Source of the DNA: Acanthochlamys bracteata
Taxonomy: Eukaryota; Streptophyta; Magnoliopsida; Pandanales; Velloziaceae
Direction of reading: 5' to 3'
Length of the DNA stretch: 64,000 bases
Assembly (NCBI GenBank): GCA_019914995.1
Contig: CM034143.1
Location: forward strand, 5,557,501 to 5,621,500
Made by a program: the position numbers and the translations under genes. The notes beneath the pieces are model-generated. The model ran no database searches, was not told the origin of the DNA, and saw nothing but the letters and a program-made list of their open reading frames with translations. This document shows, one piece after another, positions 13,658 through 47,826 of this stretch (within the stretch, counting starts at the first letter, position 1; each line of letters opens with the position of its first letter).

Positions 13658-16600
13658 TCAGACCGAGGGGAAGAACTTGTTGAGATTGAACGGTAACGAG
13701 TAGAATTCCTCGCTCCTTGTGTCCGTTTTGAATGAACGGAACCTGTCCCACCAGTGATAACCACGGTCTCTTCTGACGGCCCTGTCGTGCCTATGCAGTG
13801 TGTTGTCCAAGAAGAATGCAACCAGTCCAGCGACAAATGGTTTTGAGGAGAAGATTACGTTTACGATGTCGTTGAACTGAATGAAGAAAAACCGGTAGCC
13901 AATCAGAATATCTGGTAAATCAAAAAAATTAAATGAAGATTGATGAATATAGGTGTGTTGGTTTCTTTAACATACCCATCCAGCGCGAGTGTGCACTGGA
14001 CCGTAACCTGCAACAGAAGTGTATTCGTTGAAGTACTGGGGAACGGAGAGTCCCATGAAGACAGAGAAACCAAGAATAAATTTTGTTCTGAAGCTGTTGA
14101 GGTTACAGAACTGAAGGAAACTGAGACCAGCAGCACCTGCGAAAAAATTATAGCAGTAACAGTTAGGTTAAGGAAAAGCGTTTCAAGATGACTAGAATTG
14201 CAAACAACGATCAGTGAGTGGATAATACAAAATCTTTACATACCAACATATGCAAAGAAGAGGCAGTACATAGCTGCAAATATTGGTGCTGGGATAGAAG
14301 CAAAAACTGCGCCAAATTTTCCTGCACCGAGAAAAGAAAGAGATAATTATATATGATATACAAACTGCATGCCTTAGGCTGTTAGGCAACTGCTTGCATT
14401 TGTATACACTAGAAGAACCAATTTGTTTCTTCCATCACTGTCATGTGTGAAGTCCAACATAAGTTGACGAGAATTTTGTTTTGTTCAAATAATCAAAAGT
14501 TCACTAAACTCATTATTGAACGTAGGAGAGAAGCTCTTTAATCAAAAATCAAAAACTTTCTCGAGATTCAGTGATATAATATATCTATGCATTGAAATAC
14601 TTACCCAGAATGGAGAAGAAAATCATAAACCCAGCTGCTATCTGCACAACTCTCCGGCTGCCAACACGGGTCAAAGCTAGTAAACCAGCATTTTCCCTGT
14701 AATAATGGAAAAGGATGTAACTGTAAACCTTAAACCCAGGACAGCAAACTAGCCTAATATAATTTGTCAATGATTAGAAGCAAGACCCATTCAATATTTC
14801 ATGAAGCTTACACAGACACTGTTGATCCGTTGGCTGTTCCAAATAGCCCATCCAACAAGATGCCAATTCCCTATGATATACAGCACACTGTAACTTCATT
14901 GCAATTTCCATGAAAACAGACATAGTCCAATTAACCATAAATTTAAGTTCCCTACCTGCCAACCAATACCCCGACTAAGAACAGAAGGAGGCAGAGGTGT
15001 TGCACTTGCATACCTCGAAACAGCAATGAATGTACCAGTGGACTGTACAACAGCATTACATTCATTAAACAATTTATTCAGTATTGGAAGATGCAAAAAA
15101 CTACAAATCTTCAAGTACACGTATAGCAGGATGAGGTATGCTGAGTTGAATATGTAATAATAGATGGCATGAACAACCATACCTCTACCAGACCCACAAA
15201 TGCAGCAGCCATCATTGCAAAAGCTTCACCCGCATCAAATGTTGGTGCTCCCCATTGAAAAGGATATGGAACTCTTATCCTGACAGAATTGAAGTATATA
15301 ATCAACTTCATTATCGCGTGCCAATGTTGATTACTATGTTAATATTCCGTCAAGAATGTCTTTGCTCAATAAGCTCAAATGTCATAGTGAATACCAGGGA
15401 GCTCCACTAACAAGGCCAGAACGATCAGTGCGACAATGTAACTGAGTCTTTGGCACGGCATGCCTATATGCTCCGCCAACTGTAAGTAGGAATGCATAGA
15501 ACCAAACAATTGCAACAGAAAAGATGACAGCAAAGCGGTCAAAGACATGCCTCTCAGCATGTATAAGATGAGGTATGTACTGCAAAAGAGGTCAGGCAAG
15601 CAAGAGAAATCAATCAAACAAATTTGTATTCTAGATGAAGCATATCCTTAAGATTCAGTAAGAAAAAGGCTCCAGATAAGAGAAAGGAACATGGATGATT
15701 ACTGAAGTTCATAAGGACCAAACAGCACACCTGGGATATTACAACTAATATAATTAGCATTGGAAGGCCAATTTCGACGCATTTGGCAACCTGCATGGGG
15801 TAGAAGCTACCATCTTAGGAAAAGGGGAAAAACACTAAGTAACATAAAGACACTTCAAGTGAAACAACGTTTTCACATTGCAATCAAGTTGAAATATCAT
15901 AGAGTGCATGATAAGCTCACCCCAGGAAACCCAAGCTCATAGAGCCCAAAACCAGCCAAAGCAACCAAAGGAACTGCTGAGAGTGGACTTAGAAATCTAA
16001 AAACATAAACATATGAGAGGATTACAGACCAGAAGTCCTGAAACAAAGTATCCTTAAGCATAAAACAATGCGAGTAAAAGGGATATAACCTAACCTTGTT
16101 ACATTATGCCACAGCCCACTGAAGCCAACTATGATCTGAAGAGTAGAAGCCACAATGAGAGCTCCTTGGGTTCCACGCATTATGCGCAGAAATTTCTGCA
16201 TAATAACAATTTCAGGTCCAATAGTTGGACACATTGGGAAAACATCTTGAGTAAGAAGCAAATTTAGTAGGAAACCGTATGGGGATCTGCAATGGTGCTA
16301 TAATGACCCGCAAGAATAATAGAGATGGTGGGCACTGCAAAGGAGTATGATCCTCCAATTACTGCTGGCAAGCGAGTACCAAAAAATGTTTGCAACAATG
16401 TGTTCAAGCCAGCCACAAAGAGTATAGTCTCTATCACCCTGGCTTTATCATGCTTCAAATTAGACCAGAAATTAAGTAAGAAAGAATAGAGTTCCTACAA
16501 ACTCAAAAAGATTCTCGGAGTTGCTTACATTGTCTCCACCCATCTGAGGGACAAGAGCAGTAGGAATGATGACAGTTGTGCCAAGCATAACAAGGAAATG

Positions 16601-17431
16601 CTGGAACCCGAGAAGGATAGCCTCAGCTGCATTAAAAATCCAAAATCTAGTATTCATCATCTAATAGAATTAAGTCACAATGCAGTAACTAATTACAAGA
16701 TTCACGCTCATGTTCCATTCTGATCTGGAAATAACCATTTTGAACATTAAACGAAAATTTCAAGAATAGAAAACAAGTAACAAAGATGCAAACCGTGAGA
16801 AACACTACAGGACTCTCTCTCAGTTGAACAAGAACTGATAGAAGAGATTTATGCATTCACTAAGATGTAACTGTCAAAAATTGGTAAAATAGAAACATAT
16901 TTTCATGCTTCAGCGAAACAACAAGCTATAGGAAGGATGCTTGTTAAATTAATTAGGAACACAAGAAACAGAACATTCCTTTATGCATCACGTTAGAATT
17001 ACCACAAACTAGAAAATTCTTGACTTCAACATCCCAGACAGAAACTCAAGTCAACCTGAAGTAAAAGAAATTTTACTCATACCAACTCTTTGACATTTCA
17101 AGAAGCAACAAGAATTACAACATCACAACATCCTTTTCGTATAAAAGGTAAAAATGCAGCAAGGTATGAGCCATAATTTTGTGTTAGAAACATCTAAGAC
17201 AATCATACACAATCACCATCTACAGATTCTCCAATGACACAGGAGCATTTAAGAAAACCTGCCAAGAAAAGTAAGAAATGAACAATTATAGTGAAAAATA
17301 AGAAATAAAGAAAACTCACGCCATGGTGGTGGGCTGGTGATGCAGTAAGAGACATGAGGTAGTTGGTCCTTCACTGGATGCGGCACAAGTTCATCGGCCT
17401 TCGGCGCCGGCGCTCCTCCACCTCCGGCCAT
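13658..17431 (-). CDS. NAT6: Nucleobase-ascorbate transporter (NAT6-like)
   Basis: Fourteen exons read in phase: 17320-17431, 16529-16626, 16276-16452, 16095-16195, 15921-15996, 15731-15790, 15395-15579, 15183-15279, 14956-15042, 14812-14870, 14605-14696, 14244-14321, 13976-14136, 13658-13876. They give 533 aa, the usual NAT length (about 530). The N-terminus is MAGGGGAPAPKADELVPHPV. The QH motif is in the first membrane segment (LLGFQHFLVMLG), and the NAT signature ENAGLLALTRVGSRR lies near residues 351-365. About 12 membrane segments are expected, and the C-terminus is EEFYSLPFNLNKFFPSV. Members are H+-coupled transporters of xanthine, uric acid or other nucleobases at the plasma membrane; the substrate of this one is unknown. 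The segment before the signature reads GTANGSTVSV where relatives usually have GTGNGSSVSV. The exon 3 donor (ACG|GTTTCC) is weak but needed for phase. Confidence 0.95.
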
Positions 17432-22137: not shown

Positions 22138-25100
22138 TTACTGCCACGATGGTTGCTTGTAGGCAAATCGCTCTGTATCCCAACCCCCATCAGGTTCTTT
22201 CCTTTTCAGACCCGCACCTATCACCTGGTATATTCTAGCTCTCTCATCAGCAAATGATTGTGAAGCAGCAACTGGAAGTTGCCTCATGGTCGAAGCCAAT
22301 CTTTCACTCTCAACATCAGCACTCCCTGGACCTGCATTTAGATCTAGACCTTGTCTGTCTGTCTTGCGAGTATTCTCTGATCCGCCACTGGCACTGCCTT
22401 CTGGAAGGCTTATAACACAAGACCTGACAAAAGGCGACGAGACAGCACCAGCTGAACCCACAAGCTGAGAAGGAACAGTAGCAAAGCACGGACCACCAGT
22501 CAGAGAATCAACATAGGACGTGGAACCTGAGAAAGAGGATGAGGCAAGAGGAAAAGCAGAGCTGAAAGGGTATCCAGCATATGGAAGTGCAGTAGTATGC
22601 GAGAAAGCCATAGCTGGAGATGATGAAAGTACTGGACTTCGGTATATGTCAGTGGCTGTAGGACCTAGCACTCTCTGAGAGCCTGCTGCTGGAATGAATG
22701 AATATGTCTGTTCTCCTCGGTCTGGCAAGAAGGAAGGAATAGCAACAGTAGGATAGGAGTTTCTCGGAGGAAACCATGAAGTCATACTTCCAACTTCAGC
22801 ATCATTCATTCTGATGCAAGCAAACGAAGATTGCAAAGGAACACCATTAGTCTTAGCCTGCTGGCTCCTTATAGCATGTTCTATGCCTACTTCATCAAAG
22901 CCAGGTCCGTTCAGATCAAAGCCTCTTGCCATACTGGAATCTACATCAGGGAGTCCTCCAGACAGCGGCCGCATTGCAATTAGAGGCACTTCCACTCTAT
23001 GGGTATTGTTTGCCAAAAACTGACTGTTGTCAGTGCTTTCGTCAACTCTATTAAGATCAAGGTCAAGACCTCCAGCCAATTTTACAGATAGATTACTCTC
23101 AATGATTGCCCCAGGCTCTGAGCCTACAGTGTGCGGATAACTTTGTACTGTATTGTCTTCAAAAACTCTATCATCAGATACATTAAGATCAATGTCTAGT
23201 GCAGGCCGGACCTGTTTTGCTGGAGTAGCATCAGAGGATGGAACAGCATCTGAAGCATTGAGTGGCATTTCTAGAAGTCTCCGAGGTTCCGCAGGACGAA
23301 AGGCACTGGTAGCTGCTGAACCTTTCCAACCCGGCTCTGACTTGTTCCTCAATAGATTTTCTGGAGGGACAAAAGGTCCTTTTGCCGGAGCAGCTACAGT
23401 TATTGGAACAGGCAATTCACCTGATAATTGGGATGCTGCTAACTGTGGCAGTGGAATCGGATGTGAGTGCATCTGTGCTGCTGAAATAACATGTTCCCCC
23501 TGGTTATCATCTCCAGGGAAACCTTCATTTAAGTCAATAACAAGCTTGGATGCACCATCTGGAACAGCAGGACCAACTTCAGGAGAAATACCAGATGTCA
23601 GACTCATTTTCTCCTCTGTGGCATAGAAAGTCTTCTCTGGATCTTTTGATACATAATTGGATGGTGTTACGGCCTCTTCACAGCTGGCAGCTACAAGAGA
23701 AATTTGGGTAAAACCCCTTCTAAGTTTCGAGGCATCTTCTAAACCATTTCCAAGATTATCAACAGTTCGAGTGACAAGTTTTGCACCTTTGTTGTCACTA
23801 TCACTTGTTCCTGAATGACTGGAAATCATAGGGCTCTCAGGCTTCTCAGTGTTTACACTGTTTGTATTATCAAGATGCATAGCATTATCTACATCAGAAC
23901 AAGCAACGGCATCTCCACTTCTCACAGAAGTCTTTGCATCAACCCCAACAGCACCTTTATGCTCTTCGGAAGGAGAAACAGCATTAGATCCTATATCGGT
24001 TGCACTACTCTTCTTTGCAACCTTATCACAAGAAACCATCTCGTGCTTTGTGCCTGATGCATTGCCACCTTCCTCTTTAACACAACCAATTTTCTTCTTG
24101 TCATTTGATAATAAATCTGCTTCCTGCTGTTTACAATCAGTACCAAGATCACCTCCATATTCCCTTTCCTTCTGCCTACTTTTGAGAGGATGAGTTGCTT
24201 GTCCCTCTGTCCCTAGTTTAGTTTCAGAAGAAGGGGCAGGAGACATTACACAATCATCAATTTTTCCCAGAGACTTGACACATTGAAGCACTGTATTCTG
24301 GAAAGATGTAGCTAAACAAGGTAGTTGTTCGGTCTGCTCACCTGCTAACTTATCTTCCTTTACCATGCTATTTTGGTCACTTTGGGACCTGTTGCAGATT
24401 GCTTGCAGCCCATCCTTATTGACTGCACTAATTGATCTATCTCCATCCTTTACTGACTCATCACCAGAAGACTCAGCAGTGTGGCTTTGATTTTGAGGTA
24501 GAGCAGCATCAGGTGCAGATCTACTATGACCTCTATTGTTGTCTTCACAACTGTCATCTGGACCAGGTGGAAACACTGGAGATTCTGCCAGTGAAGCTAA
24601 GTTTGACATCTCCCCAGAAGCCACACTAGCAAGTAGATTCATACCAGTATCATCACCCACTGATAAAGGAGGGCATGCTTCTGAGTCAGTTGAACGACCT
24701 TCAATTAATGCACTTATAGAGCTCAAGGAATTCCTCATCCTAGTTTCTTCCAAGACAACCTCCTTTTCATTGCCAGATGACGCACACGTGACTTCAGAAG
24801 ATTCTCTGGTTTTTCCGGCTTCATCAGGAGTCCTACAAGATTCTTCACACTGGGAAGCTCCCTGTGATCGTTCAACTTCATCAGGCGCCGCGAGACCTTC
24901 TTTCATATCATTGCCCTGCAATGGTTCTGTGTTGACATCACCAAACCTAGATACCTCAGTCTTAACTTTTATCTTATGATCATCCTGGTCATCTTTACCA
25001 GCATCTCCAGGCGAAGATGCCTTCAGCCCCAAGAGTGAAGGGTCATCAGATGAGCCTCCGTTGCCACTTCGTCCAGGGCTACAGCCAGGATTCGGAAGCC

Positions 25101-28100
25101 TAACAGTGAGCCTGTGGCTGTTACTATGATCTGCAGAAGGAATATCCACTGTCCTTTCACATGTTGATCCACTTTGCAATACCTTATCCCCAACCAAGGT
25201 CCTATTGATGGAATTCGGCTTACCAATGCTCGCTTCTCTCTGCAATCCAGGGGCAGTCGTGGCTGCAACAAATCCATTACTTGACCTACGATGGCGAGAT
25301 GAACTACCAGCCATCTTACTTGAGTTCGTTGAACCAGAAGCATGGTTCTTTGCGTCCTCTCTCAGAGATGGACTAATCACCTTACCATGATCACTTGAAC
25401 TGGATTGACAATTGTTCTGGTAATGCCCGTTTTATTGATCTTCTCCTCCTTTGCTGGTAGCATTGGTAAGTCTGACGTTCCAGCGCCTCCTAATGGCCGC
25501 CCAGACAAATCCTTCAAGCTTACAGCCAAAGGAAAAGGCAGTGATGACTGCACTTTTAATGCCCCTGGTGTAACAGGTAACACCTTCGTGTTAGAATCTG
25601 AGGTACCAGGTTTACCAGCAACAGCAGCCTTACAAGTGGATGACTGAACCATAGAGCTCTTAAGCATTGCATCAGCTGAACTAGGCCTTCTACTTCCACC
25701 ATGAGAAACATCGGAAAACCCTGACTTGGAAGGCGAGGAAGTAGCCTGGTAGGAACCAATTGATTTCGCATCGTCAATTTTGGCCATTTCTGCATCAACC
25801 CGTTTCTTCCAAGTGTCAACAAGACTCCTAGCTTTTTTCTGAATATCAGGATTCTTATGACTTCGCAGATGATTTACGGATTTACCAATATTACATGTCT
25901 TCAGAGCATTAAGATTAACTGGCAACTTATCTAAAGCACGAAGAAGGGCCACCAGGAGTTCCTCCATTGATTTATCAACTTCCCCGGGACTGCCGCAATT
26001 GCCACTCTTCCCTTTGTGCACATCCTGGAGCCAATCATCCAAAACAGGCACACCTCTGAGCTGAACAAATCTACCAAGGCAATCTAATCTATCTGTTGCT
26101 GTAATTATATCTGCAAGCAATACTTTGCTAGCAAAATCTAATTTACTGTCAGGTCTATCAAGCTGCATAAGATTTATCAGTTGCTCTACACCCTCCACAT
26201 TTGTAAGTCCGCCCTTCTCTGTTATTTTGGCAATTTCTGCCTTGATCATCTCAAGTCTACTAGAATCACACACATCGTCTTTGCTGCTGCAATCTCTCTT
26301 GATGGATTCCATGCCTTTGTCACCTCTTTCCCTCTTCTTTCCCTTGACCTGTACAGGAATCAAAGTTCCACAATTTTGTCCACTATCAGGACCAGGTTTC
26401 AGCTGCTGTGATGAAGGTGGATTACTCAAGTTCTTAGGTGAGCACCCTCCAGATTGTAATGCATGCATTTCTAGCTGTGTCTTATCTAAAAGCAGATTCA
26501 CTTCGTCTTGCCGCTCCTAAGTGGCAAAAATAAAATGGATGTTTCAAGATAAAAAGATTTTCACAGAAGCTACAGACCTATTAAAACAGATGTAAAGAAA
26601 TCTCACATTGATGTAGTCTTGATCACTCAACCACCACAAACATTTGTTCTCAATGTCATAAACTCTCCTACAGACAAATGAAGGTAACCCTGGTGGAAGT
26701 TCAACACCTTTACGAAGGAAGGTAACTTTGCATGGATGAAGCAATGAGGCAGCCGGTGTCTCATCACGATGGAACGAGTAAAAGACTTCGTTTGGAGCAG
26801 CTTCAAGTAAACTGCCTTTAGCAAGCTTGACGTCAGCAGGTCTATAAAGCCAGTTCACACCTAGCTTAAGATGACCATCAGTGCATGCAGAAATCCATCT
26901 TATGATACCAATAAATGGTGGAGCATGGCCAGCTTGGAAAAGAGCACAGTCACCAACTTGAATCTTTCGTCCATCCTGTCAACCAAGATATTGAATGAGC
27001 ATAAAAGTGAGAAGAGAGTGTGGAAAAATCATCACACAACAAAAGCACTGCTGTACTAAATTAACAAGGACCAAGAGTTACTATTGACATGAGGTCCCTC
27101 CATAAAGATTCTACTGGAAATAAACAATCATATAGCTGCAGTAAAAATTGGCAAATGGCGTACCACAATGTGAAAAAGAATTGATAGAACTACACAATAA
27201 TATCTGATATGGGGACCAAAAAAAAATGCTCAGCCACCTTAGCAACTCTGATCATTTTATGTCTTCTGCAGCAAATTCATACTATAAATATGAGAAATAT
27301 AGCCAAAATAGAGTAAAAGAATACTAAATAAACACTTCACATAGCACACGCTCCGGAAGAAAGTGGTAATAAAACATTAACCTTCTGGTTACAGAAGACA
27401 ACCAAAAGAATTCCGTGCATTATATGCTATACTCGCACTAGCACTTTTCCTCACTGATGAAATCGTCTCCAAGGAAACTCATCTAGTCTAACTACAGCTT
27501 ATTCAACAACACTACATGATCCTGATAGAATACACACAATATAAAATCATATAATCATTTTTCCCAGGACTCATTATGATATGCTTTTCTTTTCATTTAC
27601 ATGGCTATACTATTTCCTTGCATCAAAAGCACAATAAGTTGAGAACTACAGCTTTAAAAACAACTGTTAATGAGTCGTAACTTTCTCATGTCAAAATCTT
27701 GCAGTAATAACGGCTAAAAAGAAAATGAAGTAAGAAAACTTTTGCTCACATAACAGATAGAGAAAAATCAGCAAAGCTTCTTAGAAAGAATTTTTTTTTC
27801 CTTCTAGAAACAAACTTGTGTACAAACAAAAAAGCAGAACTTGGGAGAAAACATCACATGCCAAAGGAAATAAAAAGCAGCTATAGACATGAAGATCATT
27901 GAACTTTAGGGTTCAACAAGAACAGTGAGAAGAAAGGAAACTAAAAAGAACAAAGGACGTTCAGGTGGTGTTCTTCCTTCATAACTGCAAACTTCTTACA
28001 AAACTAAAAATTCAAAAAAAGGGTGGGTCATTGAAACTTACAGCATCATACTTTTATCAAGAACCTAAATTATCAACTCAAATTTCAGAAAAGCAGGACC

Positions 28101-29388
28101 AAAAATACAGTTCCTTGTCATATCTGGCTCTGTTTTAGTTAAGTGAAACACAATCCTCAAAGCTATAATTCAGTGGTGGATAAAAATGTTAGGAATAAAA
28201 GGAGGATCACTTATGAGAAGGGGAGCTAGAGGTAACCCTATAGGTTTCTTATTATATATACTCATGTAAGTGAGAAATTAATACCAACAAATCAGAGAAG
28301 CACCTAAAAATGGAAACTGAAGTCAGGCAACATTACAAAGCGTTGAAGACCTGACTGAAGCAGAATAAGCTAGGATATATCAGTTGGACAATCCAATCTT
28401 TCCTCTGATAGGCAATCCTTCCATCAGGAAGAGACACCTTGCTTATCTTCTACTATGAATTGGGAGGAGCAGATCTATAGAAAGTTAAAAGTAAAATATA
28501 GTAATTATTGAAAATAGACATTACATTTAATACTTGGGTGTTAATTAACTTAAATCATGTCCAGTCCGCAACTTAGACAATTGATTACATGTCCATCCTC
28601 AAAAAACATTCTACAAGTACAAGCAACAGAAAGTGCTAATACACAACATTCTTTTTTATTATTACAATACATAAGAAACGAAAGAATCAAATCCAGATGA
28701 GTGTTCCCATACAAAAAATAAAAGCTGTCAAACAGAAGTAATTACGGGTTGACTGAAATAACGGGAATTAAACAATAAATAACTTATCTAAATAGTGCAT
28801 CAGCTTTACAAAAATCCTGGAGGAGCTGAAGTTATCTTCTTTCCCAAAATTAACACTTTCCCATGTCCTAGAAACTTCCATACAACACGTTTTCCAGAAC
28901 TAAAATTCAGATAATTACTTGAAAGCTGGAATTGAGAAAGGTAAATGGAAACATAGAAAGCTAAATATTAATATATATTACATATAATAGGAAAACTATA
29001 CACGTACGAACAAAACGGGTAGGGGCCAATTAAAATATGCTAAATTTTGCAAACTTCTCTTTTTTCCCCCCTTATTACTATCATAAGAAAAAATTGGTGA
29101 AGTTACAATATTTAGAATTGCTTACAAAAGAGGAGGGAAAAAGATCAAATTACAATTCAAAACAATTGAAAGGATTATTCAATGATAATAGCAAATTCAT
29201 AATATGAGGGGGAAAAAAGGTTACACCTTCTCGAAGAACCCGGTGGAGCGCAAAACCAAGCGGTCGTCTTGTTTGTTGTTGTCTCTAAATGGAGCGGGAG
29301 CTACTGCACAAGTGGGGGCCGGCACCATGCCACGTCGGTAATTCTCACGGTTCCTCGGCGGCCGCAAAGCTGCTGCCTTCCCAAGCAT
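22138..29388 (-). CDS. SUO: SUO-like BAH/TFIIS-N protein, copy A (one internal frameshift)
   Basis: Exons: 29227-29388 (54 codons, ATG at 29388), 26607-26975 (123 codons) and 22138-26516. The BAH domain starts at the exon 1/2 junction (FFEKDGRKIQVGDCALF) and fills exon 2. A TFIIS N-terminal helical bundle follows at about residues 310-425 (LLRALDKLPVNLNALKTC). Then comes a long, low-complexity, acidic/Ser-rich region with LDLNxN repeats and two GW motifs (SEPGWKGSA; DGGWDTERF), ending YKQPSWQ. The predicted length is about 1636 aa if the frame were continuous; Arabidopsis SUO is about 1600 aa. Exon 3 is 1 nt short of a whole frame: near 25424 it lacks one base relative to copy B, so the literal product is 556 aa, ending VNPVQVIMVR. 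Arabidopsis SUO is implicated in miRNA-directed translational repression. The lesion could be real or an assembly error. Confidence 0.9.
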
Positions 29389-30911
29389 GATACCTTCGAC
29401 GTGGAACCATTCTCGCCGTCGATCGAAATCAAAATCACAGCAATCGCTCCTCCTCCTCCTCCTCCCATCAAATGATTCCTTCTTCAAATCAACCCTAACC
29501 CTAGATCCGTCTCTGCAACCGTTTCCATCCACCGTTTCCAACACCGTTGAATCTTATCTTAATTACAATAAAATCAGATGCAGAAAATACCCTACGTTAT
29601 TTCCGGTATTCCTCGTACCGAAGCTTGCAAAATCTGACGGCTGGCTTTCCGGCGGCGGCGGAGTGAACGGCCGAGAAAAGAAAAATAGATTTGCGATTTT
29701 CGCGATCGCGAGATGAGAGAGAGAGATTGCGAGACCGAGAAATGTAGAGATTATAAGAGAGAACTAAACGCAGACGGCAAAAAAAGCAATATAAGAACAA
29801 CTGCACAGTTCAAGTAAATAACACTAATACAAACCAATACAACTAATCCACGTCATCATTAAGAGAGAAAGTGGTACATTTATAAGTTGTTTATAGTGTT
29901 TGGTGTTCGTTGATGTCGTAGTTTGATAGCTGACAGGTCAGCTATGTTAACACCCAATCGAAATTAAGTGGGTCCCACTCTATGTTTCTTCTTTGGTGGA
30001 TTCAGTTTTGTTGATTTGACTACGCAGCTTGATTTTATTTACTAGAACAAGCATGGCCAAGTTTTCTTTTTTCTTTTTCTTTTTTTTTTTTGGGTTCTGG
30101 TCAGTTTGGTTAGTTGGATAGTTTGGTCAGGTGTTTGGTTTACTTTTTGGAAACCAACAAACTGGCTTCAAATTCTGAGAACATGTCTGCAGATTCCTTG
30201 TGATTGATTGCAGAACATTAATAATTGTTGGTCTAATCTTAACTTCGCACTCAATCCTTCTATTAGATTAATAAATTAGCAGATGGATATCAGAACCCGT
30301 TTAGTTTAGCTTTTTTTACGTTATTTTTTAATTTTTAATTATATATTTTTTACTATATATTTTATAAATATTTATAAAAGTTTTTAAATTTAAAAAATAT
30401 AAAAAAATTTATTTCGTAAGTATTTTTAAACGTCATCTCAGAAGTAAAGTAACATGAAGATATTGTTAACCAAAAAAAAATGGAAAATTTTCACTTGCAA
30501 GAATGTAAAGCAGTGACAAGCAAACTCCAGCACTTGTGGAAATGGGTGTTAAGGCCAAAATGGTCCTCCCTATGTTGGTTTAGAGCTCTATCATTTGCTG
30601 AAATAAGGGGGTGGTAGGTGTTAAAAGGACTTCAATCCTACCATGTCTGTCCGATATTTATTCTGAGCTTTTTATAAATTTTTATGCGGCGCTCATTTTT
30701 TAATATGGACTCGAATCACCTAACCAATTCAGCTGAAGTAATCCCCTTTCCGATCCGAGGAAAGTTGTGTGAGTGCTTTGGCAGAAATAGAAATTAAGTT
30801 ACCAGAGAGATCTTCAAAGACAATTCATACAAAAAAAGCTCCATGATTTCTTATTTTGTTTTTTACAATCAACTTTATAAAAAAGTACTATACTCATCGA
30901 AGCTAAGCTAA
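29389..30911. other. SUO-A leader and promoter, and spacer
   Basis: The first ~350 bp (minus sense) should hold the SUO-A leader; the sequence near 29700-29760 is GA-rich. A telo-box doublet lies at 29491-29504. An A/T island at about 30296-30433 is bounded by CCCGTTTAG and TTAAACGTC. No gene was recognised in 29850-30911. Confidence 0.5.
29491..29504. promoter_or_regulatory. Telomere-like doublet (telo-box) in the SUO-A leader
   Basis: AACCCTAACCCTAG lies about 105 bp upstream of the SUO-A ATG. This is a short run of near-telomeric repeat of the kind found in plant promoters and leaders. Confidence 0.65.
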
Positions 30912-31173
30912 GAGCATACTTTAATTGCAATAAACTTCACATCCTCCTTTCAAAAATTTGAATTTTATTATTTCATATGTTTCAATTATCACTTCAAATT
31001 CTATTTTTATTTTCATACAAATTCCAATTCCATCAAAATTTAACTCCAAAATTTAGTTAATATGTTTCAATTACCATTACAAACTCTACTTCATCAAATT
31101 CTATTTCTCATCGAACTTGATTTGTACGAAACTCATTGTTGTGAAGCTCACTATATGTAATCAAAACATGCCC
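30912..31173. mobile_element. Tourist-like MITE, copy 2 (262 bp, TAA duplication)
   Basis: TAA at 30909-30911 and again at 31174-31176 flanks the element. The left end is GAGCATACTTTAATTGC and the inverse of the right end is GGGCATGTTTTGATTAC, an imperfect terminal inverted repeat. TAA duplication, GRGCAT ends and size fit PIF/Harbinger-derived Tourist MITEs. The interior (TTTCAATTA-type phrases) is shared with copy 1 at 3592. Confidence 0.7.
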
Positions 31174-31401
31174 TAAGCTTTCCTAGCGCATAACTTCCAT
31201 CTGTTGTGAACTTGACAAAACAAATGTTAAGCTGTAGATACCTCCAAAAATATTATCGCTGCACTTCCAGATCAACCAAAAGTGCATGCAGAGTAAAAAG
31301 AATTCCTAATCAACCAACAGCAACAGGAATATTGAACTTTATACATAAACCTGAGCATCATGCAAGCGCAGAATTGCAGATGCGCTGGAGGAAGGAAATA
31401 A

Positions 31402-31633
31402 GAGCATGTTTACCAACACTTATAACTTTTTTCCTCCAAAAACTTTTACTTCTAACTCACATTCAAATCAAAATAAGCACAAAAACTAAACTCAGGTTGT
31501 TTGGCCAGAACTCCACTTCTAAAAATTCAAATTTTAAAACTACAAACTCACTTTTAATAACACAAAAAACTGAAATCTTTTGAACTTCATTTTTTAAAAA
31601 CTCACATTCAAAAACAGCATAAGAAACACGTCT
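31402..31633. mobile_element. Tourist-like MITE, copy 3 (232 bp, TAA duplication)
   Basis: TAA at 31399-31401 and 31634-31636 flanks GAGCATGTTTACCAAC at the left, and the inverse of the right end begins AGACGTGTTTCTTATG. The ends match the other copies while the interior differs. It lies 230 bp from copy 2, between the two SUO loci. Confidence 0.55.
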
Positions 31634-31636
31634 TAA

Positions 31637-32281
31637 ATGTCCAATGAATTCGCATATAAGCATATTGAAGAATTCAACAGAAGGTGACCAGTTATCTGCA
31701 AATCAACTCAAGATCAAAACATATACCACCGATATCTGGAATATGCATAGATGCAAGTTGCACACATTAAAAATCAACAACAATCATCTCCAAAGCTATA
31801 TGACTCTCAATCAAGCTTAGTTTCTTATAGTGCAAAGACCAGACCAGAGTTATCATGTTAAAAGGAGGTAACAGGCACGATCACCAAAGAAGAATGTTAC
31901 AATAATGAATAAGATGGCCAAGGAAATTCTTATAGCGTTATATTAATGTGCAAGATAGGAAATATTCCACCATATAACACTACTCTTAAGTTAGAAGATA
32001 GTATAGGGTAGACAGTTCAATAATATTTTAAAGTACAAGTAGAGGAGGTACTTACTGTATAATATTTACTCTAGTCTAACACTATCCCAATTCCCTTAGC
32101 AGGTTTATTATGGGCATTTGCTTTAACCAATTATACAAGAGGGAATCAAATCAGAACTATAATGCCGTTATAAAGTTCTCTGGCAACTATATGGTGTGAA
32201 GAATAAGAAAAAATGGAAAGATCAAACAACTTATATTGTGCATTTTTGTTAGTTCTCAGAATATACGCATCGTAACTCACT
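31637..32281. other. Spacer downstream of SUO-B
   Basis: No gene was recognised. The stretch corresponds to the 3' flank of the SUO-B pseudogene (minus strand). Confidence 0.4.
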
Positions 32282-35200
32282 TTAATGCCAGGATAGTTAC
32301 TTGTATGCATCCCAACAGTTATCAGGTTCTTTCCTCTTTGAACCACCACCTATCAATGCATACATCCTAGGTTGTTCTTCAGTAATTGGAAATTGCCTCA
32401 TTCTAGAAGCCAATCTATCACCATCAACATCAATACTCCCTGGACCTGTATTGAGATCAAGACCTTGTCTACCAGCCTTACGACTTTTCTGACCCACCAC
32501 TGCCACCAGACTGGCGAAGGGTTCCAGCAAAAGGCCTCAAATATGGGGATGACAGAGCATCTGAGTGTCCCACAACCTGAGAAGGTATGGTGGCATAGCT
32601 GGGAGCACCACCAGAAGAATCAACGAAGGGTGTTGAGCAAACAGAAAAAGAGGATGATGCAAGAGGGAATGCAGAAGTAAAAGGGTAACCAGCATATGGG
32701 AATGCAGTAGCGTGTGAGAAAGCCGTAGCAGGAACTGATGAAAGCATTGGACTTCTGTAAACATCACCTGGAAAAGAGTTACTACTGGCAGTTGGACCCA
32801 AAAACCTCTGGGAAGCTGCTGCTGGTATCACTGAGTAAGACTGCTCACCTCTGTCAGGTAAGAATGAAGGCATTGCAAAAGTAGGATAAGAGCTTGCTGG
32901 ACCGTACCATCATGAACTACTTACTAGTTCACCATTGTTCATTCTGATGCCAGCAAAGGGTGATATGAATGGCACACTGCTAGTCCTTGCATGCTGCGCC
33001 CTTACAGCAGGTTCTATACCTATTTCATTGAGGCCAGGGCCATTGAGATCAAAGCTCCTTGAAATACTCGAATCTTGATTAGTTGGTTTTCCTGACACTG
33101 GCCTAAGAGGAATTAAAGGCACCTCAACTTTATGGCTACTGTTCACAAAGAGCTGTCCATTGTCAATACCTTCATCGACTTTGTTGAGATCAAGATCAAG
33201 ACCTCCAGCAGATCTTACAGGCATACCTCCTGATGTAGGGTCTGCAGCAGAGCTATGTGAGGCAAACTCTTCAAGAAATCGATCATCAGGAACATTCAGA
33301 TCTATATCCAGTACAGGCCAAGGCTCTTTTGCAGGAGGGCTAGTACTAGGCAAACAAGTGTCAGCAGCATTATGTGGCATCTCTAAGGTTTTACGAGGTT
33401 CTGCAGGACGAAATGCACTGGTAGCTGCTGAACCTTTCCATGGCTCTGATTTGTTGTTCGGTAGATCTTCTGGAGGGACAAAAGGTCCTTTTGCTTGAGC
33501 AACTACAGTTATTAGATCAGGTGATACACCTGACAATTGCGGTGCTGCTAACTGTGGCAGATTGTGCAAAGTAATAGGATGTGAACACATCTGTGCAGCT
33601 GAAATAACATGTTCACCCTGGTTATCATCTCCAGGGAAACCTACATTCAAGTCAATAACAAGCTTGGATGCACCATCTGGAACAGCAGGCCGAACTTCAA
33701 TAGAAATAGCAGATGTCAGTCTCATTTTCTCCTCTGTGGCATAGAAAGACTTCTCTGGTTCTTTTGATACGTAATGGGATGGTGTTATGGCCTCTTCACA
33801 GCTGGCAGCTACAAGAGAAATTTGGGTAAAACTCCTTCTAAGTTTCGAGGCATCTTCTAAACCATTTCCAAGATTATCAACAGTTTGAGTGACAAGTTTT
33901 GAAACTTTGTTGTCACTATCACTTGTTCCTGAATGACTGGAAATCATAGGGCTCTCAGGCTTTTCACCCTTTATACTGTTTGTCTCATCAAGATACACAG
34001 CATTATCCACATCAGAACAAGCACTGGCATCTCCACTTCTCACAGCAGTCTTCACATCAACATCCACAGCAGCTTTATGCTTTTTCAAAGGAGAAACGGT
34101 ATTATATCCTACATCAGTTGCGTTACTCTTCTCTACATCCTTATTGCAAGAAATCATATCGTGCTTTCTGCGTGAAGCATCGCCATCTTCCTCCTTCATA
34201 GAACAAATTTTCTTCTTGTCATCCGCTAATAAATCTATTTCCTGCTGTTTACGATCAATGCCAAGATTGCTTCTATCTTCGCTTGCATTCTGCCTACTTT
34301 TGAGCAAATGAGTTGCTTGCCCCTCTGTCCTTGGTTTAGTTTGAGCAGAAGGGGCAGGAGACATTATGTAATCATTAATTTCTCCTTCCTCAACTTTTTC
34401 CTGAGACTTGCACAAAGCGTTGTATTCCGGAAAGATGTAGTAGAACAAGGTTGTTGTCCGGTCTCCTCACCTGCTAACTTTTCTTCCTTTATCATGCTTT
34501 TTTTGTCAATTTGGGACCTATTGAGGATCGTTTGCAGTCCATCCTTATCGACTAGTGATCTCCGTCCATCCTTTACTGACTCATCACCAGAAGAATCAGG
34601 AACATGGTTTTCATTTTGAGGTAGAGAAGCATTAGATGCAGATCTCCTAAGGCCTCTATTGTTGTCTTGATAACTGTCATCTGGGCCAGGTGCAAAAACT
34701 AGAGATTCTGCTGGTGAAGCTAAGTTTGACATCTCCCTAGTAGCCACACTAGCAAGTAGATACATACCAGTATTATCACCTTCTAATAAAGGAGGGCAGG
34801 CTCCTGAGTAAGTTACACAACTTTCAAGTAATGCACTTATAGAGCTCAAGGAATTCCTCATCCTAGTTTCATCCAAGACACCCTCCTTTGCATTGCCAGA
34901 TGACAAACAGGTGATTTCAGAAGATTCTCTGGTTTTTCTGGCTTCATCAGGAGTCCTACAAGATTCTTCATAACGGAAAGCTCCTTGTGAACGTTCAACT
35001 TCATCAGGCCCCGCAAGACCTTCTTTCATATCATTGCCCTGCCATGGTTCTGTGTTGGCATCACCAGACCTGGATACCTCAGTCTTATCTTTTATCATAT
35101 GATCATCCTGGTCATCTTTATCAGCATCACCAGGAGAAGATGCCTTCAGCTCCAAGAGTGAAGGGTCATAAGATGAGCCTTCGTTGCCACTCTGTTCAGG

Positions 35201-38200
35201 ACTACAGCCAGAATCAGGAAACCTAACAATGAGCCTGTGGTTGTTAATATGATCTGCAGAAGGAATATTCAGTATACTTTCACATGTTGATCCACTTTGT
35301 GATACCTTATCCCCAATCAACGTCCTACTGATGGAATTTGGCTTACCAATGCTCGCTTCTCTCTGCAACCCAGGGACCGTCGGGGCAGCAACAGAACCAT
35401 TACTTGACCTACGATGGCGAGATGAAATACCAGCCATCTTACTTGAGTTCATTGAACCAGAAGCAGTGTCCTTTGCATCTTCTTTCAGAGATGGGCGAAT
35501 CACTGTACCATGATCACTTGAAGTGGACTGAGACTTGTTCTGGTAATAACCCGTATTATTGATTTTCTCCTCCTTTGCTGGTAGCATTGGGAAGTCTGGC
35601 ATTCCACTGCCTCCTAATGGCCTCCCAGACAAATCCTTCGAGCTTACAGCCACAGTAGAAGGCAGTGATGATTGCACTTTTAATGCCCCTGGTGTAACGG
35701 GTAACACCTTCGTGTTAGATTCAGAGCTACCAGGTTTACCAGAAACAGCAGTCTTGCAAGTAGTTGGCTGAACCATAGAGCTCTTAAGCATCGCATCAGC
35801 TGAACTTGGCCTTCCATTTCTACCATGAGAAATGTTGGAAACGCCTGACTTGGAAGGCGAGGAAGCAGCTTGGTAGGAACCAACTGATTTCGCATCGTCA
35901 ATCATAGCCATCTCTACATCAACTCGTTTCTTCCAAGTGTCAACAAGACTCCTAGCTTTCTTCTGAATATCAGGATTCTTATGACTTCGTAGACGATTTA
36001 CGGACTTACCAATATTACATGTCTGTAGAGCATTAAGATTAACTGGCAACTTATCTAAAGCACGGAGAAGGGCCACTAGAAGTTCTTCTAATGATTTATC
36101 ACCTTCCCTGGGACTTCCACCATTGCCAATCTTCCCTTTGTGCACATCCTGTAGCCAATCATCCAAAATAGGCACGCCTCTGAGTTGAACAAATCTCCCA
36201 AGGCAATCTAATCTTTCAGTTGCTGCAATTACATCTGCGAGCAATACTTTGCTAGCAAAATCCAATTTCCTCTCAGGCCTATCAAGCTGCATAAGACGTA
36301 CCAGTTTCTCTACGCCCTCGACGCTTGCAAGTCCAGCCTTCTCCATTATTTTGGCAATTTCATCTTTAACAATATCCACTCTACCAGAATTACTATCACC
36401 AGCTTTACTATGACGTTCTCTCTTGATCGGATCCAAGCCATGATTAACCCTTTCCCTTTTCTTTCCCTTGGCCTGGACAGGATAGGAAGTGCCACTGTTC
36501 TGTGTACTATCTGAACCAGATTTCAACTGTTGTGAAGATAATGAACCATTTGAGTTTCTTGGTGAGCGTCCTCCTGATTGCAATGAGTGCATTTCTAATC
36601 TTGTTTTATCTAACTTCTGGTTGAGTTCTTCTTGTCATTCCTGGTACAACCAATAAAACAAGTCTTTACAAATCATGCTTGACAAGAGTTAACAGGAAGA
36701 GAAAAAGGACTCACATTAGTTTAGTATGGATCGGTCAACCACCACAAAAACTTGCTTTCAACGTTGTAAACCCGCTTACAAACAAATGATGACAAGCCTT
36801 CTGAAAGCTCAACGCCCTTCCCAAAGATGGATGAAGTAACAATGCAGCTGGTATTTCATCCCAGTGGGAGGAATAAAAGACTTTGTCTGGTGCAGCTTCT
36901 ACAAAGATGCCCCTTGCAAGCTCAATGTCAGCAGGTCTATACAGCCAATTAACACCGCGCTTGAGGTAGTTATCATCAGAAGGGGAAAACCACTGTATGA
37001 TACCAATAAAAGGTTGGGCATGACCACCCTGAAAAAGAGCACAGGCACCAACTTCAATTTTACGACCGTCCTGCGATACAGGAAATTTCTTAGGAAATAA
37101 AGAAAACAGAAAAAGAAAAGAAAAAGAGAAAGAGAAGGAAAAATAATATAAAGTAGATATAACAGGAAAGTATTAGATTAATCAAAGATTTAATTGGAAA
37201 ACAAGAACATATTCAATGCAGAATTCATTACTAAAGCAGGCTACTTCAAAAGCAGCTATTGGTGGTGCTAAGTGAAGGAAGAAAAAGCCTGTACTAGTGC
37301 AGGCAACTCACTACAATGTTATTACCCTATCGGATATATGAAAGACAAAAGTATTGGTATTAACAAAACAACAAAATCTCTAGGAACTGAAAATGGTTAA
37401 CAACTACAATCTGCTTCACAAGTTCATGACAGAAATAAAGAGTTCAGACAAGATGGTCACTAAAGCGGTTTATTGGTATCATAATATCAACAGGAAGGAA
37501 TGATCACCAGCAGGCATCAGCAAGCAGTTTATGCCTACAGAAACCTACAAACAAGGGAGTTCATTTTGTTCAGACTAGGTCCTCGTCTAATACACATGCT
37601 GATACGTCATCATAAGCGTGCAGGGCCTTAAGCTTATTATCTCTATAATCTCAGTAAGATTGCTCCAAGATCACAAAGCTATCGATGGTGTTCCAGTCAA
37701 AATGACTCATTTTACTTTGCAAAAGATTGAATATACCAAGGCGTTTGACTTCAGTGCGGCTTGGACACCTAATGAAAATACAAAAGCTAGATTGTGTGCC
37801 TTGTCTAAGACAAAAACAGCAATCCACAGCCGAAAAGATAAACCAGCTGAGTTATTCTTCCTTGAATGAGTCCAAGTATAACTTGCATAATAATTTTTAA
37901 CGCCATCTGCATACTGCATGAATGCACTTCTTACATGCCACAAAAAGCAATTCTTGCATTATGTATTGCTGCTAGGCTCAAGCATAGCTCTATACTTCAT
38001 CTTTAGCTCAAATTGAATCTCTAGTTATCCTGCTTCGATGTGAAGGTCTACCTTTATCAGGGTTAACTTGAAAATCTGATACAACACAGGTGCAAACACC
38101 CCAAGCTGTAATTAAACATCCATTGTCTTACAATATCATGAAAAAGGATAGGAGAATTGAGTAATTGCAAAAACCAACAACTTTGCCTTCAAGTGACTAC

Positions 38201-38368
38201 AAACCAATTTTGCACTATGATGTTTCCATGGAACACATCCACAAATTTGAAATGAGGTCCAAACCTCAGCCCAGCCTTAGAAATTTGGAATTCTGAAATT
38301 ACAAATGCAAATCCAGGGACTTCTGATTCAGTGCACACCACACTGCTCTTCTTGGTTCAATTCACAGC

Positions 38369-38404
<36 letters not shown>

Positions 38405-39304
38405 TTCCTTTTTGCACTCACTAAATGTCCCCTATAAATCATGCACCGCAAACTTCAATATGCAGGTTGTCTCTATTCTCTTAAAATTTTTAAATAAATC
38501 TATTTCCCGCTCCAAATCTCTATATATCTCTCTTTGATTTCTAGAGATAAAATGGATATAAGAGGCATACAGGTTTTGTCATGTGCGCAAGCAGAAATAT
38601 AGCTGAAATTTTCAAAAGTTTATAGCTTAGCTATGTTCGAAAATTTGTCCTGGCTTTGCTTATATTTTGTCGACAAGCATTAAGTCTCATCAATATCATG
38701 GAAATGTGTGATGCATTCATTTGCATGTAGTACTACAAAGGAAACTTGTACAAATATAAAAGCAAATAAGGAATTTTAGAATTTCATTTTTTTAGAGAAA
38801 CAGCATTAAGACATGTAAATAAAGCACGTTTGTTTTCGTTGAGCATATAGGCAAAAGTAACACAACAAGTCTAATGCATAAACTAGTAATTATGTTCTGG
38901 CCACTATTAACTTTAATCCTGCAACAGCAGCTTCCTGTCTTTTACATAAATATATCTTAAAGAAACACTTAACAACAATGAGTACCATAATTGACCTATG
39001 ACTTTTAACGACTTACAAGAGAGAATCATTTTTTAGCTCAGTTTTTGCTTCACTGGTACAACTAACACAAAAATTTTGCTAAAACTCCATCGCGTGACAA
39101 TCTTCTGTGTCTAGTTAGTCTCAATTCATGTGTAGAAACAGAATTCAAATGCTGCTGAACCTTTAGAAAGAAACCCGGCGGATGCAAATCACCATCCGCG
39201 ACCTAGCTGTCGTCACTCGTCAGTTGTCATTGAACTAGAAAGGCTCGACACCATGCCACGTCATCATTCTTCGTCGACGGCTGATGCTGCTCCCTTCCAA
39301 GCAC
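32282..39304 (-). pseudogene. SUO-like copy B, tandem duplicate in decay
   Basis: The layout matches copy A: exon 1 relic 39161-39304, BAH exon relic 36715-37070, long exon from about 36640 to 32282. The position matching A's ATG reads GTG (39304), and the exon 1 frame soon hits TGA. The BAH exon has a deletion frameshift after LLLHPS and TAA where A reads DYIN. The long exon opens E-stop-QEEL (TGA at 36637). After that 742 codons are open to about 34440, where a net 4-nt loss shifts frame, then 512 codons to a TGA just upstream of 32910. Another frameshift lies near 32485, and the ending YKQPSWQ reads YK-stop-LSWH. Both GW motifs seen in A are gone (SEPWKGSA; DNCWDAYK). At least eight disabling changes, yet the remaining protein is close to A, so the decay looks fairly recent. 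Confidence 0.9.
38368..38402. repeat. (CT)n(CA)n compound microsatellite
   Basis: About 11 CT units run directly into about 6 AC units inside the large first intron of the SUO-B relic. Likely length-polymorphic. Confidence 0.92.
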
Positions 39305-44731: not shown

Positions 44732-47700
44732 GGGCATGTTTGGCTAAGCTTTAAATTTAAAGCTTTTGGACGAAAGCTGCTGTTTATGTGCTTTTGCTGA
44801 AAAAAACGACCGTTGAACTTTTGATTAGAAAGCTGTTTTTCTCTGAATTATGTTTGGATAAATTTTACTGTTTAAAGCTTTTTCGTAAAAAGAAATTAAA
44901 AATATGTTTGGCTAAGCTTGTGCTTATAAATAAATAAAGTATATAATGATTAGAATGTCCTTGGATATATAATAAATGATGTTAAATTTGAAAATCTATT
45001 TTCATGTATTATTTGGTTTATTGAAAATTATTTTTATAACATATTTCTAAAATATATTTTATTTAATTTTTTATAGTAGTATTTATAAACCTATTAATAA
45101 ATATATTATTATTATTTATAATAATATTTTAAAATTATTTTAAATATATAAATATACTATTATTTAGTATAATTAAATAATAATTAATAATAAATTAGTA
45201 GAAATGAATATATATACAGTAATACATACAAACAAAGCTTGAAAATAAGCACTCGCAAACGTTTAACACATACATACGAATGGATTCACATTCAAAAGAA
45301 ATGAAACTATACATCTTACAGTAATACACCACAAAAAAAAAAGTCTTATATTTCACACACTTCGGACTCTTACATGTATATTTATGTAATATAAATATTT
45401 TAACACTAGCAAATAACAAACACTCCCACTAGTTAGCATGTTGGTCTCAAATAAGAGAAGTTACACAAACTGAAACAGATATATAGAGAACATATGTTCA
45501 TTGATCAAGCAAAAATTTTGCATGATAATTTGAAATTTTGTACAATAAAAAGAGTCATGCTCTTTGAAACTTAATGTACAAAATAGATAATGATATATAG
45601 CTATCAAATAAAAATCATCATATTAATCAAGGCATACATACATATAACCAAATAATTTAAATACAGGATACATAGTTATGGCTCTTCTTAGCAGCAAAAT
45701 AGAAGTTGTCCAGTTTGTCCATGACTACAAGTGTTAGATGCATTCTGCTGATTTCTAAAATAATTATTTGAACAGACCCATTGCAATTCTGAGTTTGATC
45801 ACTTTGAAGTTGTTGCTTATACAGGTTCCCTTTAGCTTTTGAGTTCAGAAATCGACCCCCACATCCTCAACAGTATCTGTTGGAAAAGGAATCCTAGCTT
45901 GATGCATGCCTATCATCTGCAGGTGTATCCAAATATGTCGGAGTACTAGCTATTCATTCTAAGAAAAAAGAAACAAAAAAAAAAAACAGAGAATCTTCCT
46001 GTCCAAAATATATCAAAATGATTGGTTATTCTTATAACTGAACAAAAAGTCAAAAGCTTGAACTTTTTATAAAAATTTAAATACTAAATTGCATGGTCAT
46101 ACTAACATATGACATAAAAAATAACTAATAGAATATCTTTCTTCAAACTCTGAACAATGAACCGGCTTTGAGATGTTCCAGTTTTAGTTGACTATTAAAT
46201 ATTTAAACAAGTCTTTAGATAAGATTAAAATAAATAAATCACAAATTTGTATTAGGACAATATGATAAGTAGCTCTGTATCTACTAAAAAAAATGGACTC
46301 TTGGATTTATGTCTGTATTGTATGTTTCACAGATTTTTTGAATCAACACTAATTTTTCAGAACATCAACAAAAGCTTCTTAATCCAAATTTCTTACATAA
46401 AGTAAGGAATCATATTACCTAATCAACTAAGCATACATACAAGTAAAACGTAACCTTCATACATACATGACAAGCAAATGAAAAATAAATATTTGAAAGA
46501 CTTACATGAACTGCTGGTTGTCAAAGTATAACAGATTCAGGATTGAGATGGGACATTTTTTCAGAGAATCTCTTTAACTGTTATGGGTGTTTAATATCAA
46601 ATTGCACTATCATACTAAATGTGGTCTATCAAACTCCAGCAAACCAGCACAATCCAATTTTTCTAAAGAGAAAACAGACCTAAAACTTATAAGCAAGTAC
46701 ACATAAAAACCAGTATGTATGATCCAAGGCATACATTTTCTTCAACGCATCATTTGCCACTTACATATGAAACAAGGTTTGACAACTCCCACTACTGCAG
46801 ATTATAGAACCCTCAGAATTTACATACAAACAAAATCAGTTCATATAAACTAAAAGCACGATAAACTAACTGCCACCAAACATCGTTAAAGTAGAATATA
46901 TGTCAAGTGTAGGATTTTGCTTACATTAAAAACAAAAGAAAATCTCTCTGGTGGTGCTCAGTATATGCTGCAACTGTTGTTGAGAATGCATCCGACCGTT
47001 CCAAGGACAACAATGGTAGCATATTGATCGAATCGAACACCTGCGAAAACGAAATTGCGAAACATGTTGAGGTTACGGGTCACATAGATCCCTAATCGCA
47101 AATAGGTGTCTGTCTCACGTGACGGTGGGGAACTAGCTGAGCAGAACTCAGACCATCAGAATGACGCTGTAGATATCAAGCCACTTAATCATGCTCGCAG
47201 AGATGTCAATGAATGGAGTGCTGAAATCTTAGAATTCTTCACCTTCCTCGCAGCTAGTGTTCTAAGATTTCTTAATTCCTCAAACTTCTCAAATAAAGAA
47301 AGAAGAAGAAGGCGAAAAAGAATGTGAGAGAGACAGAGATATCACCTTGATTCAAGTGAGATTAGGGATGAGTGCGGAGAACAAATTTCTCCGTTCGGCT
47401 ACAGGAAAAAAAAAGAAGAAGAAAAAAATGTTAGAGAACAGAGCGATCATCTTAATCCGGCGAGATTAGGAATGAGAGCAGTAAAGAAATTTCTCCGTTC
47501 GGCTAAAGGGAGAAGAGATTAGGGATCGAAAGAGCAAGAGAGCGGAGAGAGCAGGGAGAAGAGTAAGGATCGAAAGAGCGAATGAATCAGACAGATAGAA
47601 GAGGAAGGGTAAGAGGGTATATAAATTATTGTAATCTCGTAAACTTATTAAGGATACATAACCAAAAGCCCCCGCGTTGCTTTTATCAAAAGCATCAATC

Positions 47701-47826
47701 GATGCTTTTTTCATAGAGCACCGTAAACAGCTTATCTTGACAATAAGCATGCGTTGCCAAACATTAATTTTATTGTTTAGTGTTTTTTTTTCTATAAACA
47801 GAAAAAAACCATAGCCAAACATGCCC
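44732..47826. mobile_element. 3.1-kb non-autonomous TIR DNA element
   Basis: The ends are perfect inverse copies: GGGCATGTTTGGCTA at 44732-44746 and its complement ending at 47826. The octamer ATGTTTGG recurs inside both ends in the orientation of its own end: 44736, 44850 and 44904 at the left; 47757-47764 and 47815-47822 (as CCAAACAT) at the right. This is the pattern of subterminal transposase-binding sites. GGGCATGTTTGG ends suggest PIF/Harbinger. Flanking triplets (GAC, AAC) do not make a clear duplication, so old age or rearrangement is possible. No transposase frame was seen; the short frames inside (45195-45419, 47106-47327) match nothing I know. Confidence 0.6.

What the first reader, a model, noticed from the sequence alone, without database searches (positions are those of the whole stretch)
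22138..39304. Tandem SUO-like pair in which both copies are damaged
Two full-length BAH/TFIIS-N/GW genes lie head to tail, with matching exon layout and leaders. Copy B has at least eight disabling changes. Copy A has a single frameshift. Arabidopsis also has SUO and a close homologue as neighbours, so this locus either keeps an old tandem arrangement or re-duplicated. If both lesions are real, this genome has no intact SUO here and would need another locus or tolerate a 556-aa truncated form.
Basis: partly seen in the sequence, partly recalled or inferred. Interest (0 to 1): 0.72.

Follow-up and report, generated by a model that had tools for sequence, protein, structure and literature searches.

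The report
Old plant gene pair, partly overwritten
Two neighbouring copies of a plant gene resembling SUO (a protein linked to microRNA control) are both broken in this assembly, but open sister copies sit on a duplicated chromosome segment, and the middle of the dead copy was overwritten long ago by its neighbour; this is an instructive but ordinary case of gene decay after duplication.

Summary
Two head-to-tail SUO-like genes (BAH, TFIIS-N, two C-terminal GW motifs) lie at 22138-29388 (A) and 32282-39304 (B). A has one 1-nt frameshift near 25432, leaving a 556-codon frame. B has eight disabling changes (seven in exons 2-3, plus a lost frame in exon 1) and has lost both GW motifs.

The worry that the genome lacks an intact SUO is not supported. 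A collinear segment on contig C16 carries the same tandem pair, both open (A' 1633 codons; B' open from a second ATG). Protein searches of the assembly found four close loci in all.

Old tandem or re-duplication? Leader, intron 1, exon 2 and the 3' part group A with A' and B with B', so the tandem pair predates the C16/C18 duplication (probably whole-genome). About 2.9 kb inside exon 3 groups B with A instead: an A-to-B gene conversion, about 0.6-0.7 as old as the A/A' split.

B died later. A's frameshift is very recent or an assembly error: the 1,097 codons behind it are open and evolve like A'. 'Matching leaders' is not supported: A and B leaders are 37-57% identical; each matches its C16 partner.

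The parts
29227..29388 (-). A, exon 1 (54 codons, ATG at 29388)
   Evidence: open frame, GT donor, same start as A'
26607..26975 (-). A, exon 2: BAH domain
   Evidence: Pfam PF01426 E=7.8e-15; 90% identical to A' in protein
22138..26516 (-). A, exon 3: TFIIS-N-like (Med26) domain, long C-terminal region, two GW motifs
   Evidence: Pfam PF08711 E=3.7e-16 in the part before the frameshift; GW at residues 701 and 1083 of the part after it
25431..25434 (-). A, 1-nt deletion (frameshift) beside a run of four A; the frame then stops at 25377-25379
   Evidence: alignment with B, A' and B'; 556 codons to the first stop
39161..39304 (-). B, exon 1 remnant: frame lost, in-frame TGA from the second ATG (39254)
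36715..37070 (-). B, exon 2 (BAH) with 13-nt deletion at 36828 and TAA at 36723
32282..36640 (-). B, exon 3 with TGA 36637, 4-nt deletion 34413, TGA 32912, 2-nt deletion 32486, TAA 32299; both GW motifs lost
33386..36335 (-). B, gene-conversion tract copied from A
   Evidence: change-point gain 142 log units against at most 12.3 in 200 permutations; AU test rejects the other two topologies, p about 0.001
23274..26211 (-). A, donor stretch matching the conversion tract
34364..36634 (-). B, central open frame of 756 codons (742 from the first ATG at 36592) still holding the TFIIS-N-like domain
   Evidence: Med26 E=8.9e-17; first ATG

Best explanation
This is an old tandem pair of SUO-like genes in a plant genome with duplicated segments, and it is being lost from one of the two homoeologous segments. 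Order of events: (1) tandem duplication gave A and B; (2) segmental, probably whole-genome, duplication gave A/B on C18 and A'/B' on C16; (3) on C18, about 2.9 kb of exon 3 of A was copied into B (ectopic gene conversion) while B was still under selection; (4) B later lost its start-exon frame, BAH frame, C-terminal frame and both GW motifs; (5) A acquired a single frameshift very recently, or the base is missing only from the assembly. Shown here: the four loci, their lesions, the mosaic and its direction. Inferred: that A' and B' carry the function and that their redundancy allowed the loss; that a 556-aa A product, which keeps BAH and TFIIS-N but lacks both GW motifs, would not do SUO's job.
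For: C16 is collinear in patches with window 13402-63989 and carries A' (1633 codons, no internal stop) and B' (exons 2-3 open, stop three codons before the usual one; exon 1 in frame from the second ATG). Protein searches of the assembly find four close loci; the next hits are 34-39% identical. Site patterns outside the tract: 611 for (A,A')(B,B') against 35 and 32 for the alternatives; inside: 33 for it, 84 for (A,B), 34 for the third. Topology tests: leader, intron 1, exon 2 and 3' part favour (A,A')(B,B') by 130-543 log units; the tract favours (A,B) by 22 (AU p about 0.001 for both others), and each half by 10-12 (AU p 0.005-0.03). B in the tract since conversion has omega 0.48, and omega = 1 is rejected (2dlnL 15.2), so B was alive after the conversion. 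Lesion clock for B, all exon 2-3 lesions: 0.017 neutral substitutions/site (0.007-0.034), against about 0.10 for the conversion and 0.16 for the A/A' split per lineage (my arithmetic from the branch lengths). A behind the frameshift: omega 0.45 (grid range 0.35-0.7), 3' part 0.26 (0.15-0.45), both below 1; raw N:S 43:33 against 44:29 in A'; no second lesion in exons 2-3, so dead for at most about 0.007 neutral substitutions/site if dead.
Against: In the tract since conversion, A's omega is 0.81 (0.55-1.2), higher than A' (2dlnL 7.9), which would suit an older relaxation of A; raw counts do not show it (54:22 against 125:63, p=0.56). The neutral branch lengths of A and B in the tract are unequal (0.215 and 0.374), so omega and dates there are rough. 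Six of seven exon 2-3 lesions of B lie outside the tract (p=0.017, found after the fact); lesion clocks for flanks and tract differ (0.036 and 0.004), which a single late death of the whole gene does not predict well. One middle piece of B's tract has omega 1.1. The permutations treat sites as independent. No expression or read data. No second species was available, so 'whole-genome' is inferred from one collinear segment.
Confidence: 0.88

Rival explanations
1. A's frameshift is an assembly or sequencing error, and A is an intact third SUO-like gene.
For: Single 1-nt indel beside an A run; the 1,097 codons behind it are open and contain both GW motifs; post-frameshift omega equals that of A' (0.45 and 0.46); no other lesion in exons 2-3.
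Against: A young real lesion predicts the same pattern; omega of A in the tract is somewhat high. No base-level error rate for this assembly was obtained.
Confidence: 0.45
2. A's frameshift is real and recent, perhaps still polymorphic; A yields a 556-aa BAH/TFIIS-N protein without GW motifs, or its mRNA is degraded.
For: The sequence as given; two open copies on C16 make loss tolerable; slight rise of A's omega in the tract.
Against: No accumulated lesion and no relaxation in the 3' part (omega 0.26). The constraint cannot separate this from an error.
Confidence: 0.5
3. B was re-created by a recent whole-gene duplication of A on C18.
For: A-B identity of 81-95% per window over the middle of exon 3.
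Against: Leader, intron 1, exon 2 and 3' part of B group with B' by 130-543 log units.
Confidence: 0.01
4. The A-like middle of B is an assembly chimera rather than a gene conversion.
For: Two near neighbours of similar sequence can be confused in assembly (general knowledge; no result here supports it).
Against: A chimera should be nearly identical to A; the tract differs from A at 5-19% of sites per window and has its own 4-nt deletion.
Confidence: 0.02
5. B is not fully dead: its central open frame (from an ATG at 36592) still makes a TFIIS-N protein without BAH and GW parts.
For: 742 codons open with the domain; omega 0.20 in the TFIIS-N part since conversion, omega = 1 rejected (2dlnL 21.6); only 1 of 7 exon 2-3 lesions lies in the tract.
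Against: The same constraint is expected if B died late; the next tract part has omega 1.1; it needs a new promoter or an internal start; the lesion skew was found after the fact; N:S of B in tract and flanks does not differ significantly (69:33 and 39:12, p=0.35).
Confidence: 0.06

Closest known systems
SUO of Arabidopsis (At3g48050)
   Same: N-terminal BAH domain and two GW repeats at the C-terminus, as a review describes SUO (PMC7766579, passages); here BAH and Med26/TFIIS-N by Pfam and exactly two GW motifs in exon 3 of A', B' and A. The locus number beside the name was seen in passages of PMC6027899.
   Different: B has lost both GW motifs.
At3g48060 of Arabidopsis
   Different: Whether the Arabidopsis pair descends from the same tandem duplication as A/B could not be tested.
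Ectopic gene conversion between tandem paralogues, followed by pseudogene formation (general phenomenon; recalled)
   Same: A sharply bounded tract with donor-like phylogeny inside an otherwise old paralogue.
   Different: Only in setting: a second, unconverted pair on the homoeologous segment fixes order and direction.

Membership tests
SUO-like (BAH / TFIIS-N / GW) proteins | N-terminal BAH domain | tested here: met
   PF01426 in exon 2 of A, A' and B'; B's exon 2 was not scanned, its frame is broken by a 13-nt deletion and it does not appear among the BAH matches
SUO-like (BAH / TFIIS-N / GW) proteins | TFIIS-N-like (Med26) domain | tested here: met
   PF08711 in A, A', B' and B's central frame
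SUO-like (BAH / TFIIS-N / GW) proteins | two C-terminal GW motifs | tested here: met
   present in A', B' and A behind the frameshift; both absent in B
SUO-like (BAH / TFIIS-N / GW) proteins | orthology to At3g48050 | not testable with these tools
   no Arabidopsis protein at hand; PMC3252893 not held
SUO-like (BAH / TFIIS-N / GW) proteins | role in miRNA-guided translational repression, P-body localisation | not testable with these tools
   described for Arabidopsis in reviews, passages only
Ectopic gene conversion tract | phylogeny switches at sharp borders within one gene | tested here: met
Ectopic gene conversion tract | recipient and donor identified against unconverted orthologues | tested here: met
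   inside the tract B leaves B' and joins A and A'
Pseudogene (B) | several disabling changes and relaxed constraint | tested here: met
   eight lesions; N:S outside the tract 39:12 in B against 12:13 in B', p=0.019; omega of B outside the tract is 0.55 and still below 1 (2dlnL 4.8), as for a gene that died late
Pseudogene (A) | relaxed constraint behind the lesion | tested here: not met
   omega 0.45 post-frameshift and 0.26 in the 3' part over the whole A branch, both below 1; N:S as in A'; but omega 0.84 in the tract part behind the lesion since conversion, not different from 1

The most novel reading that the evidence does not exclude
The C18 locus has become a source of GW-less SUO forms: A encodes a 556-aa BAH/TFIIS-N protein, and B's converted middle survives as a TFIIS-N fragment, either of which could compete with the full-length C16 proteins.
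Probability: 0.06. Interest if true: 0.5.

Novelty: new member of a known kind. Interest (0 to 1): 0.3.

Why it matters
It is also a clean natural example in which four copies (two tandem paralogues on two homoeologous segments) reveal the order of tandem duplication, segment duplication, gene conversion and gene death. It warns that a single tree of the whole coding sequence would mislead, because about 60% of B's coding length comes from A.

Tried and rejected
Rejected: whole-gene re-duplication of A into B; absence of any intact SUO; assembly chimera for the tract. The comparison of B with A lists many apparent stops because A's own frame is shifted; I set those rows aside and used the comparison with A'. 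B' shows a paired 1-nt deletion and insertion at one place, an alignment effect with no net frame change. The exon-1 query was read one base out of frame, so I do not use its protein identity; the in-frame exon 1 is. One search ran the topology tests but printed no result rows; they were repeated with output. I considered -1 ribosomal frameshifting at A's lesion and dropped it because the sequence is not a usual slippery site (my reading; no call).

Assembly error rate: a local ORF comparison was meant to show whether other genes here carry 1-nt frameshifts. It is inconclusive: at 13.9-15.3 kb neighbouring matches change frame, and the DNA there shows many indels against C16, some of 1 nt, but six open frames from that stretch have no Pfam match above cut-off, so it may not be coding. 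The species was not identified; a literature guess (listing only) was not pursued. Literature searches listed no paper whose title or abstract start describes this pair; that is no proof of absence.

Full report
What is there. The window is C18:5557501-5621500 of an unnamed 195.5-Mb assembly in 557 contigs; the gene content says plant. Two genes lie head to tail on the minus strand. Both have three coding exons with GT/AG borders at the same places. In A, A' and B' exon 2 carries a BAH domain and exon 3 a Med26/TFIIS-N domain. A, A' and B' each have exactly two GW motifs in exon 3, near the C-terminus, which agrees with a review's description of Arabidopsis SUO (PMC7766579, passages). The reviews seen differ on mechanism: PMC10298304 says direct binding of AGO through GW has not been investigated, PMC5732267 lists interaction with AGO (passages).

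Lesions. In exons 2-3, A differs from its sister copy A' by one frame-breaking change, a 1-nt deletion at about 25432 next to four A's; the first stop comes after 556 codons. B has seven lesions in exons 2-3 and a broken exon 1, eight in all. Both of B's GW motifs are gone: PGW has become PW, and GGW has become NCW.

The rest of the genome. Two protein searches and a Med26 search (top four of 11 matches) show four close loci: A and B on C18, and A' (5684345-5677563) and B' (5693698-5687044) on C16. The BAH search (14 matches) found three of the four; B's damaged BAH exon was missed. The tool scores only the best candidates, so a further weak copy cannot be fully excluded. A' is open for 1633 codons. 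B' is open in exons 2 and 3 up to a stop three codons before the usual one, and its exon 1 is in frame from the second ATG. The next protein hits, on C3 and C5, are 34-39% identical. Window 13402-63989 and the fetched C16 stretch match in the same order in patches. So the genome is not short of an intact SUO-like gene.

Age of the tandem pair, and conversion. I aligned the four genes with leader and introns. Outside the middle of exon 3, A goes with A' and B with B': 611 sites support this against 35 and 32 for the two alternatives. Likelihood tests favour it by 130 (leader and exon 1), 543 (intron 1), 133 (exon 2 to start of exon 3) and 198 (3' part) log units. The tandem pair is therefore older than the C16/C18 split. 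Within A 26211-23274 / B 36335-33386 the picture reverses: 84 sites support (A,B) against 33 and 34, and that tree beats the others by 22 log units (AU p about 0.001), and by 10-12 in each half (AU p 0.005-0.03). A change-point model gains 142 log units; the best of 200 permutations gained 12.3. Because B leaves B' there and joins the A/A' side, the copy went from A to B. From the tract tree, A and B are about 0.067 substitutions/site deep and A and A' about 0.10; from the codon model, about 0.10 and 0.16 neutral substitutions/site (my arithmetic in both cases). The conversion is thus roughly 0.6-0.7 as old as the A/A' split.

Order of decay. B was still constrained after the conversion: omega 0.48 in the tract, with omega = 1 rejected (2dlnL 15.2), most clearly in the TFIIS-N part (0.20; 2dlnL 21.6), less so in the last part (0.50; 2dlnL 4.9) and not in the middle part (1.1). 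A lesion clock, using stop-codon opportunity and the indel rate of intron 1, puts B's death at 0.017 neutral substitutions/site (0.007-0.034), later than the conversion. The flanks alone give 0.036 (0.013-0.079) and the tract alone 0.004 (0.0001-0.022): six of seven exon 2-3 lesions lie outside the tract (p=0.017; noticed after the fact). Outside the tract B shows more amino-acid changes than B' (39:12 against 12:13, p=0.019), but B's own flank and tract ratios do not differ significantly (p=0.35). These hint that B's ends decayed before its middle, but the hint is weak.

Is A's lesion real? The sequence behind it is open for 1,097 codons, has omega 0.45 over the whole A branch and 0.26 in the 3' part, both significantly below 1, and N:S counts equal to A' (43:33 and 44:29). 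With no second lesion, A cannot have been dead for more than about 0.007 neutral substitutions/site. Against this, A's omega within the tract since the conversion is 0.81 and above A' (2dlnL 7.9), though raw counts show no excess (p=0.56). A real, very young lesion and an assembly error fit about equally well.

The leaders of A and B match each other poorly (37-57% identity per window); each matches its C16 partner. The worry that no intact SUO exists is answered by C16.

Limits. No reads, no transcripts, no second species and no Arabidopsis sequence were available, so orthology with SUO, the term 'whole-genome duplication' and the reality of A's lesion remain inferences. Neutral branch lengths in the tract are unequal between A and B (0.215 and 0.374 per codon), so omega values and dates there are rough. 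B' is hard to align in the fast-evolving middle (52-62% identity in places), but the (A,B) grouping also shows directly in A-B identity exceeding A-A' identity over most windows of the tract. I could not measure how often this assembly carries false 1-nt indels; a local test was inconclusive.

Noticed in passing
window 44732-47826: About 3.1 kb of dispersed repeat, 93-94% identical to copies on C10 and C13 and with many partial copies elsewhere; it falls in a stretch with no match in the collinear C16 segment, so it is probably a fairly young transposon insertion on C18.
   Followed up: partly
window 57381-57709: A stretch of about 330 bp that is inverted relative to the collinear C16 segment, 85% identical.
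   Followed up: no
L011, C16 about 5693700: B' lacks about 70 bp around the position of A's first ATG and appears to start at the second ATG; it also ends three codons early with TAG.
   Followed up: partly
G000:C3 8975716-8977728 and C5 2484730-2486721: A pair of more distant proteins that share both the TFIIS-N stretch and a C-terminal stretch with SUO (34-39% identity, open frames of 931-938 aa); neither came up in the BAH search.
   Followed up: no
window 33386-36335 against the rest of B: Only 1 of B's 7 exon 2-3 lesions lies in the converted tract, although it makes up about 60% of those exons; a surviving central product or chance could explain it.
   Followed up: partly
window 13400-16650: Conserved stretch against C16 (about 66-90% identity per window) with many small indels that break matching open frames; coding status unclear, no Pfam match above cut-off in six frames tested.
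   Followed up: partly
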